Shown one piece after another: positions 24,131 through 27,274 of a stretch of 64,000 nucleotides of DNA. The notes under the pieces are model-generated. The model did not search any database. It was not told the origin of the DNA and saw only the letters and a program-made list of their open reading frames with translations. The position numbers and the translations under genes are program-made. Position 1 is the first letter of the stretch. Each line of letters begins with the position of its first letter. Origin of the DNA: a virus; IMG/VR virus record IMGVR_UViG_3300045125_000058, positions 24,102-88,101 of that record; one strand, written 5' to 3'.

Positions 24131-26019
24131 ATGCCAGAAGTTTTATCACCATTTCAATCGTTTATTTTTATCTCGCGCTACTCACGATGGCTTCCATCAG
24201 AAAATCGTAGAGAAACATGGGATGAATGTGTCGATAGATGGTGGAATTACTTCACTGACAAAGTTCCAGCATTGGCAGAACGACCAGACATCAAAAAGCA
24301 ATTTTGAATCTTGAAGTTCTTCCATCCATGCGCAGTCTAATGACTGCTGGACCTGCATTGAATCATGACAATACTTGCTTGTACAATTGCTCGTACTTGC
24401 CTATTGATTCCATTGATTCATTCGCTGAGTTGTTTGTAATTCTCATGAATGGAACTGGTGTTGGCTACAGTGTAGAACGACAGTACACTGATAAACTTCC
24501 TGCTGTCGCAAATAAAATAGAAAAGGATTTTAATGTTATCGTCAAAGTTGAAGACTCTAAAGAAGGTTGGGGAAACGCTCTCAAGGAAGTTCTACGACAT
24601 CTGTATTCGGGTCGTCACGTTAAATGGGATGTTTCCGGGATCCGACCCGCTGGAGCCTAGACTTAAGACTTTTGGGGGTAGGGCTAGTGGGCCTGCTCCT
24701 CTTGATAATCTCTTTAAGTTAATTGTAAAGGTATTCTATGCAGCACAAGGAAGAAGACTTACTGCTTTGGAATGTCACGATATTTGCTGTGCTATTGCTA
24801 ATGCTGTTATCGTAGGTGGTGTTCGTCGTTCTGCGATGATTTCACTCAGCGATCTTTCTGATCGTGAAATGGCATTGTGCAAGAGCGGAGCATGGTGGGA
24901 GCAAGCAGGATATCGTTCATACGCAAACAATTCTGCGGTCTATCGTGGTCGTCCACCAATGGGCCAATTCCTTGAGGAATGGACTTCACTATACAACAGC
25001 CATAGCGGTGAGCGTGGTATGATCAATCGTAAGGCTTTGCAAGAGCAAGCAGCCAAATGGGGTCGTGATCTTGATTGTGAGTATGGAACGAATCCATGCT
25101 CAGAGATCATTCTTAAGCCATTTGAGTTTTGCAATCTTTCAACGGTTGTTGTTCGTCCTGATGATACAGCAGCAACACTCAAAAGAAGATTGAAATGGCT
25201 ACAATCATTGGTACTGTTCAATCCACCTTCACAAACTTCCCATATCTTCGTCCTGAGTGGAAGAAGAACTGCGAGGATGAAAGACTTCTTGGTGTCAGCA
25301 TGACTGGCATCTATGACAACAAACTCACCAGTGGTCTTGAAGGCAAGCCAAAGTTGATTCGTTTGCTTGAATCTCTAAGAGATCATGCAACTGCCACCAA
25401 TCTTCACTGGGCAGAGAAGTTGGGAATCAATCCAAGCAAGTCGATCACTTGCGTCAAGCCAGAGGGCACAACTTCGTGCTTGGTAGATTCTGCATCTGGT
25501 CTTCATCCAAGATATGCAGATTATTATTATCGTAGAATTCGCATTGACAAGAAGGATCCAATCTACAATCTCATGAAAGACCAAGGTGTTCCTTGTGAGG
25601 ATGATGTCATCAATCCAAACAATACTGCAGTCTTCACATTTGCAATGAAGGCTCCCCGTGGAACAATCACCACAGAAGATCTTCGTGCATTGGATCATTT
25701 GGATCTTTGGAAGACATATCAAGAGCACTATTGCCAACACAAGCCTTCTGTGACGGTAAACTATCGTGACAGCGAATTCCTTGAAGTTGGAAATTGGTTG
25801 TGGGAAAATTTTGATGTTGCAACCGGAATTTCATTTCTTCCGGGTGGTGACAATCACACATATGCTCAGGCTCCGTTTGAGCAGATTGATGCGGCAACTT
25901 ATGGCGAACATCCAAAGATTAAAGTGAACTTTAAAGAACTTTCAAAGTATGAATCACAGGACAACACAGAGGCAGCAAAGGAATTTGCATGTTCTGCAGG
26001 AGGTTGTCAGATAGTGTAA
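24131..26019 (+). CDS. nrdJ: Adenosylcobalamin-dependent ribonucleotide reductase (class II)
   Basis: Reduces ribonucleoside triphosphates using coenzyme B12. About 629 aa after repair of breaks near 24302, 24657 and 25190. The first redox Cys lies in 'NHDNTCLYNCSYLP'. Thiyl-radical and acid residues are in 'NPCSEIILKPFEFCNL'. The phosphate-binding segment is 'KPEGTTSCLVDSASGLHPRY', and the C-terminal shuttle pair is 'ACSAGGCQIV'. 'GGRASGPAPLDNL' is diagnostic of the monomeric RTPR type. No small subunit is needed, and none is seen. Use depends on host cobalamin. Confidence 0.93.
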
Positions 26020-26025
26020 CATTGA

Positions 26026-26098
26026 TGGAGTGTAGCACTAACGGAAGTGCAATCCGCTGTTAACGGATCGGTTACAGGTTCGAATCCTGTCACTCCAG
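26026..26098 (+). tRNA. tRNA-Asn (anticodon GTT)
   Basis: A complete cloverleaf with acceptor TGGAGTG/CACTCCA, D-stem GCAC/GTGC, anticodon arm ATCCG-CTGTTAA-CGGAT and T-arm ACAGG-TTCGAAT-CCTGT. All stems are perfect. CCA is not encoded. Confidence 0.93.
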
Positions 26099-26106
26099 TT
26101 CAAAAT

Positions 26107-26179
26107 GCCACTTTAGGCTCAATGGTAGAGCCTTGCTTTTGTAAAGCAGAGGTTGCGGGTTCGAATCCCACAGGTGGCT
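26107..26179 (+). tRNA. tRNA-Thr (anticodon TGT)
   Basis: Cloverleaf with acceptor GCCACTT/AGGTGGC, D-stem GGCTC/GAGCC and anticodon loop TTTGTAA. The T-stem GCGGG/CCCAC has one C-A mismatch. CCA is not encoded. It lies nine bases after tRNA-Asn. Confidence 0.9.
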
Positions 26180-26260
26180 TGAGTATACTCAAGCGGTCAA
26201 CGAGGGCACACTGTAAATGTGCTGGCATTGCCTACGAGGGTTCGAATCTCTCTGCTCGCA
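26179..26260 (+). tRNA. tRNA-Tyr (anticodon GTA), long variable arm
   Basis: Type II tRNA with D-stem CTC/GAG, anticodon arm GCACA-CTGTAAA-TGTGC, a long variable arm and T-arm GAGGG-TTCGAAT-CTCTC. The 3' acceptor strand TGCTCGC would want 5' GCGAGTA, but TTGAGTA is present, so the first pair is mismatched. The 5' end abuts tRNA-Thr, which suggests one or two lost bases. Confidence 0.85.
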
Positions 26261-26274
26261 CTAAATAATTGTAT

Positions 26275-26371
26275 GCGTAGTCCAGCAGCGAGATAATCGT
26301 CCGGCTGATAGGATCTTTGATCTAGAACAGAGATCTGATAAGCAATAGAGGTGCAAGTCCTCCACTACGCT
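26275..26371 (+). tRNA. tRNA-like element, anticodon unclear
   Basis: A perfect 7-bp acceptor stem GCGTAGT/ACTACGC encloses 83 bases with a near-perfect T-arm (AGAGG-TGCAAGT-CCTCC) and a 5-bp hairpin GATCT-AGAACAG-AGATC. The central loop lacks the usual T33 and the D-loop lacks GG, so no amino acid can be assigned. It is either a damaged long-arm tRNA or a tRNA-like leader of the tmRNA gene. Confidence 0.4.
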
Positions 26372-26566
26372 TTGGTATTGTTGATATCAGATAGAAATGT
26401 GTATGACACGGGAGTTCGAATCTCCCCGGATCCACTATACGGGTCCGACAGGCATCGATCAGCGCAAAGTATTAAAGAAGGAGATACCCGACACGGGTAA
26501 CAAGTGTCGTAAATAAACAGTTGCAACAACAAAAGCCGCACCATTGCGGATGGCTGCTTAAAGCAG
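26372..26566 (+). ncRNA. ssrA: Permuted two-piece tmRNA
   Basis: The gene order is reversed compared with one-piece tmRNA. The acceptor piece ends with T-arm GGGAG-TTCGAAT-CTCCC (26410-26426), acceptor strand CGGATCC and discriminator A (26434). Six spacer bases follow. The coding piece then begins GGGTCCG (26441), which pairs with the acceptor strand and places a G-U at pair 3-70, the alanine identity element. An H-type pseudoknot follows (TACCC/GGGTA and GACAC/GTGTC, 26485-26508), then the resume codon GCA at 26523. The tag reads ATTKAAPLRMAA, with stop TAA in the loop of CTGCT/AGCAG. Ribosome-rescue role by homology. Confidence 0.85.
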
Positions 26567-26574
26567 TGGGGTTT

Positions 26575-26613
26575 CCCGGTTTTCCCGCGACTGAAAAACC
26601 GGGATTTTTTATT
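26575..26613 (+). terminator. Rho-independent terminator after tmRNA
   Basis: Stem CCCGGTTTT/AAAACCGGG with an 11-base loop is followed by ATTTTTTATT. It would end the transcript covering the reductase, tRNAs and tmRNA. Confidence 0.85.
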
Positions 26614-26715
26614 GGCATAAATAATTTTGCCAAAGGATGTTGGATACCGCATTTTCTCTTGAGTCTTCGAAGTACCACCCAACAGAAAATTTAGGTCCAC
26701 ATCCTTTGAGCGAGG

Positions 26716-26723
26716 TATAAATA
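26716..26723 (+). promoter_or_regulatory. T4-type late promoter TATAAATA
   Basis: An exact octamer three bases before the ATG at 26727 and twelve before ATG 26736. The usual spacing seen here favours the second ATG as the start. Confidence 0.65.
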
Positions 26724-26726
26724 CCT

Positions 26727-27274
26727 ATGTTCTATATGCTTGTAGGTGTTGACTACTCAATAACTTGTCCGTGCTTGTGTCTGTTTGACGAGCGCAAAGA
26801 CTTTAAATTTTCAAACTGTTTTTTTATTATCTGACAAATACTAAAAAATTTGCAGATAAAATTTTACCAAATATTACTGGAGAAAGTTTTCAGGAATATG
26901 TGGCCGATGTAGATCGGTTTGACAGCATATCTGATTGGGCATCAAATTTATGCATAGGGGCTTCTGACGTAGCCATTGAAGGGTATTCTTATGGCAGCAA
27001 AGGCAAAGTTTTTAATCTTGCCGAGAACATGGGTATCTTTAAGCATAAGCTCTATAAGGCCGGGGTTCCCGTGACCATCATAGAGCCGTCCAAGGCAAAG
27101 AAACTCGCCACAGGCAAAGGTAACGCTGATAAAGTGGCAATGTACAAAGCCTTCTCCGAAGAGACGGATACAAATTTAGTGTTCACTTTTAATCAAAAAT
27201 CTTTGACAAATCCGGTGACGGATATTGTGGACAGTTACTATATTTTAAAATCTTTGCTGGCTACCAAAAATTAA
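26727..27274 (+). CDS. RuvC-like Holliday-junction resolvase (one indel)
   Basis: About 180 aa; ATG at 26727 or, better placed after the late promoter, 26736. The RNase H-like fold is indicated by 'LVGVDYSITCPCLC' (first catalytic Asp), 'VAIEGYSYGSKGKVFNLAEN' (Glu), 'KKLATGKGNADKVAMY' and 'DIVDSYYILK' (C-terminal Asp). Similar RuvC-family resolvases occur in many large phages and may replace T4 endonuclease VII to resolve branched DNA before packaging. One frame break near 26830. Its stop overlaps the convergent gene. Confidence 0.8.

What the first reader, a model, noticed from the sequence alone, without database searches (positions are those of the whole stretch)
26372..26566. Phage-borne circularly permuted two-piece tmRNA
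The acceptor part precedes the coding part, separated by six bases. Seen directly: a 7-bp acceptor stem across the break with G-U at pair 3-70, a T-arm, an H-type pseudoknot (TACCC/GGGTA with GACAC/GTGTC), a resume GCA, a 12-residue tag ATTKAAPLRMAA and a stop codon in the terminal hairpin loop. Permuted tmRNA is characteristic of alphaproteobacteria, and phage tmRNAs described so far are mostly one-piece. The tag ends M-A-A instead of the usual L/V-A-A. It suggests that the phage takes over ribosome rescue or retargets tagged proteins.
Basis: partly seen in the sequence, partly recalled or inferred. Interest (0 to 1): 0.88.

Follow-up and report, generated by a model that had tools for sequence, protein, structure and literature searches.

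The report
Compact two-piece tmRNA in T4-type phage
This phage carries its own gene for a two-part version of the RNA that rescues stalled ribosomes; such phage genes are already known, but this one is unusually compact, and its closest relatives carry an undescribed folded RNA segment inside the same gene.

Summary
Window 26374-26566 is a circularly permuted (two-piece) tmRNA gene. ARAGORN calls it as permuted with tag ATTKAAPLRMAA, and Rfam tmRNA_permuted scores 52.2 bits against a cut-off of 47. I compared 46 distinct genes, the window's included, from one clade of uncultured T4-type phages. All keep a 7/7 acceptor stem across the break, with compensatory changes, an invariant G3-U70 pair and an Ala-Ala-ending tag.

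Two-piece tmRNAs in phages are already documented: 53 of 133 distinct isolate-phage tmRNAs (PMC9004378). I also found them in CcrColossus, phiCbK and Panino. Kinship to alphaproteobacterial tmRNA fails the test. Met before Ala-Ala alternates with Ile and Val in the clade, so retargeting is unsupported. The first stem of the proposed pseudoknot competes with a better-supported helix.

What is new is the variation. The window's spacer between acceptor ends is only 6 nt. Most relatives have 71-98 nt there, folded into a conserved, covarying RNA that matched no Rfam family, GTDB genome or isolate phage tested. Likely function: host-SmpB-dependent ribosome rescue during infection (inferred). Host unknown; phage smpB not found.

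The parts
26374..26378 (+). GGTAT, 5' end of the acceptor piece, pairs with ATACC 26484-26488
   Evidence: 46/46 sequences paired, one pair with a double-sided change; pairing also in the RF04321 alignment
26398..26402 (+). TGTGT, pairs with GCGCA 26462-26466 (tmRNA P2-type helix joining the two pieces)
   Evidence: ARAGORN layout
26410..26426 (+). T-arm GGGAG-TTCGAAT-CTCCC
   Evidence: ARAGORN; stem pairs covary in relatives
26427..26434 (+). 3' acceptor strand CGGATCC plus discriminator A73; CCA not encoded
   Evidence: 7/7 pairs in 46/46 sequences
26435..26440 (+). intervening segment CTATAC, to be removed at maturation; 5-6 nt in this form, 71-98 nt in most relatives
26441..26447 (+). 5' acceptor strand GGGTCCG (G3 pairs with U70)
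   Evidence: G3-U70 invariant in 46/46; pairs 4-7 show compensatory changes
26448..26459 (+). D-loop analogue ACAGGCATCGAT
   Evidence: aligned to the RF04321 D region
26485..26508 (+). PK1-type stem-loop: GACAC 26490-26494 with GTGTC 26504-26508; possible competing stem TACCC 26485-26489 with GGGTA 26495-26499
   Evidence: GACAC/GTGTC has two double compensations in 5 sequences; TACCC/GGGTA broken at two pairs in 5 of 46
26523..26561 (+). tag reading frame, resume GCA to stop TAA: ATTKAAPLRMAA*
   Evidence: ARAGORN; homologous tags across 46 distinct genes
26554..26566 (+). terminal hairpin CTGCT-TAA-AGCAG with the stop codon in its loop
   Evidence: sequence; 33 of 46 genes identical here, the others differ at the stop codon or next to it
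26572..26612 (+). likely intrinsic terminator CCCGGTTTT...AAAACCGGG plus T-run; conserved in relatives but not picked up by the simple scan
   Evidence: sequence, alignment; not listed

Best explanation
A genuine phage ssrA gene of the circularly permuted kind. One transcript folds so that the acceptor stem is capped by a 7-nt loop (A73 plus CTATAC). Cutting on both sides of the 6-nt spacer (5' side probably by RNase P, 3' side by RNase Z or exonucleases, then CCA addition) leaves an acceptor RNA and a coding RNA held together by base pairing. AlaRS charges it through G3-U70. With host SmpB and EF-Tu it enters stalled ribosomes, adds the tag and releases them, so the phage keeps up or supplements trans-translation while host RNA is lost during infection. 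The gene, tag frame and two-piece pairing are shown from sequence; processing, charging and use during infection are inferred. The compact spacer is probably a derived version of a form whose spacer is a conserved folded RNA in most relatives.
For: ARAGORN permuted call; RF04321 52.2 bits over cut-off 47. In 46 distinct genes: acceptor 7/7 paired with compensatory changes at pairs 4-7, G3-U70 and A73 invariant; tag ending [M/I/V]-A-A* conserved. Syntenic tRNA-Asn/Thr/Tyr array in relatives. 18 of 19 whole records, chosen mostly because they were large or already tmRNA-bearing, carry one. The nrdJ tree puts the compact form inside one clade, with the long form throughout the rest and at the base of the compact clade. 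No smpB found in 16 records.
Against: No RNA data. RF04321 score is only 5 bits above cut-off, and older clade models are far below theirs. Removal of so short a spacer from a tmRNA precursor was not tested. Host unknown. In 17 of 46 genes of the clade the GCA resume codon is out of frame with the conserved tag end, which the simple model does not explain.
Confidence: 0.8

Rival explanations
1. Decoy: the RNA occupies host SmpB or AlaRS and inhibits host trans-translation, like the tRNA-like-domain-only tmRNA of mycobacteriophage DS6A.
For: Inhibition by such a domain in E. coli is reported for DS6A-type RNA (PMC11915505, PMC4131195); no phage smpB found.
Against: The full tag frame and its Ala-Ala end are kept under change across 46 distinct genes; a decoy would not need them.
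Confidence: 0.1
2. Passenger: a captured host ssrA gene or relic with no function, kept by linkage in the tRNA array.
For: ssrA fragments in prophages are noted in PMC9004378.
Against: Compensatory changes in acceptor and T stems, conservation across the clade at more than one genome position, no GTDB genome contig carrying the clade's spacer motif.
Confidence: 0.06
3. On origin, not function: the compact form was not made by simple deletion of the spacer but by exchange of a module (T-arm, both acceptor strands and spacer) from another tmRNA. Compatible with the best explanation.
For: L056 matches compact forms in T-arm plus 3' acceptor (33/34) but the long form L150 (25/34 there) in the tag segment (51/51).
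Against: Few sites; no donor identified.
Confidence: 0.5

Closest known systems
tmRNA_permuted (Rfam RF04321), the two-piece tmRNAs of Alphaproteobacteria, Betaproteobacteria and Cyanobacteria
   Same: gene order, tRNA domain, tag frame, two-piece pairing
   Different: spacer only 5-6 nt, CCA not encoded; does not reach the cut-off of any of the three clade models
ssrA of Methylophilales phage Melnitz (MZ577097) and the marine two-piece phage tmRNAs of PMC9004378
   Same: permuted tmRNA on a T4-type phage genome; Melnitz also has a B12-dependent RNR, ThyX and DNA polymerase B
   Different: Melnitz tag ANDNYVPVDYALAA, long spacer, reported glutamine riboswitch; window RNA has no such riboswitch hit
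Permuted tmRNAs of Caulobacter phages CcrColossus and phiCbK (unannotated in the records) and Maribacter phage Panino
   Same: RF04321 hits of 83.8, 71.4 and 62.2 bits
   Different: unrelated tags and spacers; the long-spacer model R1 finds nothing there
Circularly permuted tRNA genes with short acceptor-loop spacers (1-74 nt; PMC3978253)
   Same: short spacer between acceptor ends, thought to be removed by RNase P and tRNase Z
   Different: those halves are religated to one piece; tmRNA stays in two pieces

Membership tests
Permuted (two-piece) tmRNA, Rfam RF04321 | covariance-model score over the curated cut-off of 47 bits | tested here: met
   52.2 bits
Permuted (two-piece) tmRNA, Rfam RF04321 | acceptor strands in reversed order with a 7-bp stem across an intervening segment | tested here: met
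   7/7 pairs, compensatory changes in relatives
Permuted (two-piece) tmRNA, Rfam RF04321 | AlaRS identity pair G3-U70 | tested here: met
   46/46 sequences
Permuted (two-piece) tmRNA, Rfam RF04321 | tag frame with resume codon and stop, ending hydrophobic-Ala-Ala | tested here: met
   ATTKAAPLRMAA*
Permuted (two-piece) tmRNA, Rfam RF04321 | mature RNA is two molecules | not testable with these tools
   needs RNA from infected cells
alpha_tmRNA (RF01849) | score over cut-off (50 bits) | tested here: not met
   not listed at gathering threshold; for comparison CcrColossus reached 53.5 bits
beta_tmRNA (RF01850) | score over cut-off (84 bits) | tested here: not met
   34.2 bits
Standard one-piece tmRNA (RF00023) | 5' acceptor half before coding part, 3' half after it | tested here: not met
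   ARAGORN layout permuted; no RF00023 hit at gathering
Phage tmRNA under glutamine riboswitch (Melnitz type) | glnA-type riboswitch next to the gene | tested here: not met
   no such family in 26000-26900 at E up to 10

The most novel reading that the evidence does not exclude
The 71-98-nt spacer of the sister tmRNAs is a new functional RNA (self-processing or ligand-sensing) that controls maturation of the two-piece tmRNA, and the window's lineage has escaped this control by reducing it to 5-6 nt; in addition, part of the clade sets the tag frame +1 from the standard resume codon.
Probability: 0.2. Interest if true: 0.75.

Novelty: new variant of a known kind. Interest (0 to 1): 0.47.

Why it matters
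Phages that carry their own ribosome-rescue RNA offer a natural test of why trans-translation matters in infection. This clade adds three testable things: a two-piece tmRNA with almost no spacer, a conserved folded spacer RNA of unknown role in its sisters, and tags whose conserved end is out of frame with the rule for choosing the resume codon.

Tried and rejected
Chance or contig artefact: rejected (46 distinct genes). Alphaproteobacterial origin: tested, not met. Host assignment: no Photo_RC (psbA-type) or CsgG genes in ten records; GTDB hits to the NrdJ piece are Patescibacteria at 40-47% identity, but that search is pattern-driven and none of 145 Patescibacteria genomes exceeds the RF04321 cut-off, so no host is claimed. 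T4-type RNA ligase 1 not found in seven records, but the control rang nowhere, so this is uninformative. Known ribozymes or riboswitches in the long spacer: no Rfam match other than tmRNA families at E up to 10 in L146. Promoter scan not above shuffles.

Full report
What is there. Window 26374-26566 (+) holds a circularly permuted tmRNA gene. ARAGORN calls it as permuted with tag ATTKAAPLRMAA. Rfam RF04321 tmRNA_permuted scores 52.2 bits over 26374-26561, cut-off 47, E = 2.5e-7. Read from the sequence: T-arm 26410-26426, 3' acceptor strand 26427-26433, discriminator A 26434, spacer CTATAC 26435-26440, 5' acceptor strand 26441-26447, resume GCA 26523, stop 26559-26561 in the loop of the terminal hairpin. 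CCA is not encoded.

Homologues. A 454-aa gene beside the locus and the nrdJ piece brought in related uncultured phages. A T-arm/acceptor pattern found 16 contigs with the same compact form. Relatives without a tmRNA beside nrdJ often have one elsewhere: of 19 whole records searched, 18 have an RF04321 hit. These records were picked mostly because they were large or already known to carry the gene, so 18 of 19 is not a prevalence estimate. In all, 46 distinct genes (the window's included) were compared. They were found by motifs of the window's gene and of the long spacer, so more distant members will have been missed.

Evidence for the fold. The acceptor stem is fully paired in 46/46, with three standard pair types at position 4, four at position 6 and two each at 5 and 7; T-stem pairs covary too; G3-U70 and A73 are invariant. 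Stem GACAC/GTGTC is doubly compensated at two pairs in five sequences. A pseudoknot is therefore possible but not established.

Two forms. The compact form (window and 17 contigs) has a 5-6-nt spacer. The long form has 71-98 nt: a GCC/GGC stem around hairpin 1, hairpin 2, and an optional hairpin 3. On 29 distinct spacers 95.1% of cells pair, 11 pairs change on both sides, and 0 of 500 shuffles reach the pairing or covariation score; one of the five measures, the number of further pair types, was below all shuffles. The structure was drawn by eye from these same sequences, so the slid-register control favours it. An independent RNAalifold run gave the same hairpin 1 core and hairpin 3, the GCC/GGC stem, and a slightly shifted hairpin 2. 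Single spacers fold only modestly better than shuffles (z -1.6 to -1.8). Most covariation is in hairpins 1 and 3. The predicted loop-loop contact CTGCAA/TTGCAG rests mostly on invariant pairs, has one doubly changed sequence (L144), and its fifth pair is unpaired in 23 of 29. The spacer motif was found in 43 IMG/VR contigs and in no GTDB genome contig (exact pattern). A covariance model of it finds nothing in CcrColossus, phiCbK, Panino or Melnitz. No Rfam family other than tmRNA models matches it.

Direction of change. On a tree of the nrdJ piece the long form occurs across the tree and at the base of the branch that contains the compact form. The compact form is therefore probably derived, with two long-form lineages inside its clade. 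The root is a midpoint and several forks are weak. L056 looks mosaic, so exchange of a T-arm/acceptor/spacer module is at least as likely as deletion.

The phage. DNA polymerase is about 43% identical to cyanophage T4-type polymerases. Relatives have a T4-type Gp23 capsid, closest to Synechococcus phages at 54%. The window's own record gave no Gp23 match. Host unknown. SmpB was not found in 16 records, several of them fragments, with the control ringing in 10 of 14 genomes.

Mechanism. Processing of the capped acceptor loop, alanylation, SmpB-dependent tagging and ribosome release follow from established tmRNA biology; none was shown here. A short acceptor-loop spacer is known in permuted tRNA genes, where RNase P and tRNase Z are thought to remove it (PMC3978253). 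The tag end MAA alternates with IAA and VAA, consistent with an ordinary ClpXP-type degron (general knowledge), so special retargeting is not supported.

Against what is known. PMC9004378 found 402 phages with tmRNA, 133 distinct structures, 53 of them two-piece and 50 of those from marine or aquatic phages. PMC11915505 lists 79 distinct phage tmRNAs. The window's gene is a new variant of this known kind. I did not see an earlier description of the compact or long-spacer clade in the open-access library searched, which lacks most subscription papers.

Open oddity. In 17 of 46 genes the frame from GCA to the conserved stop is 40 nt, so GCA is out of frame with the conserved ...A[MIV]AA end, while the bases just before it are the same as in in-frame genes. 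By the ruler of PMC2481249 (resume codon four bases after A86) GCA should be chosen. Three different sequences show the extra base, in many assemblies, so a shared sequencing error is unlikely.

Noticed in passing
26275-26370: Unannotated cloverleaf-like RNA just upstream of the tmRNA: 7-bp outer stem GCGTAGT/ACTACGC, T-loop-like UGCAAGU, and a palindromic central loop (TCTAGA here, TTGCAA in others). Variants occur in L003, L052, L079, L144, L146, L147, L150, L171, L185; no Rfam match at E up to 10; ARAGORN calls it only with relaxed settings and inconsistently.
   Followed up: partly
L144 3458-3554, L146 3116-3211, L147 3221-3317, L150 3269-3364 and others, between acceptor strands: 71-98-nt structured spacer in the long-form tmRNAs, covarying, no known family.
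   Followed up: yes
L152, L155, L156, L160, L165, L167, L187 and ten more: Tag frame of 40 nt: GCA resume codon is +1 out of frame with the conserved tag end.
   Followed up: partly
24304-26019: nrdJ is split into three ORFs in different frames in the window but is one 629-aa ORF in L065 and L067; the window contig probably carries indel errors.
   Followed up: yes
L204 676-969; L205 676-994: Caulobacter phages CcrColossus and phiCbK carry permuted tmRNAs (83.8 and 71.4 bits) that are not annotated in the GenBank records used here.
   Followed up: partly
L206 669-877: Maribacter phage Panino, a phage of a Bacteroidota host, has a permuted tmRNA with a spacer of about 39 nt.
   Followed up: partly
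L067 4872-5288 and 5459-6070: HNH endonuclease and a phrog_3704 protein (labelled ferredoxin) inserted in the tRNA array of relatives.
   Followed up: partly
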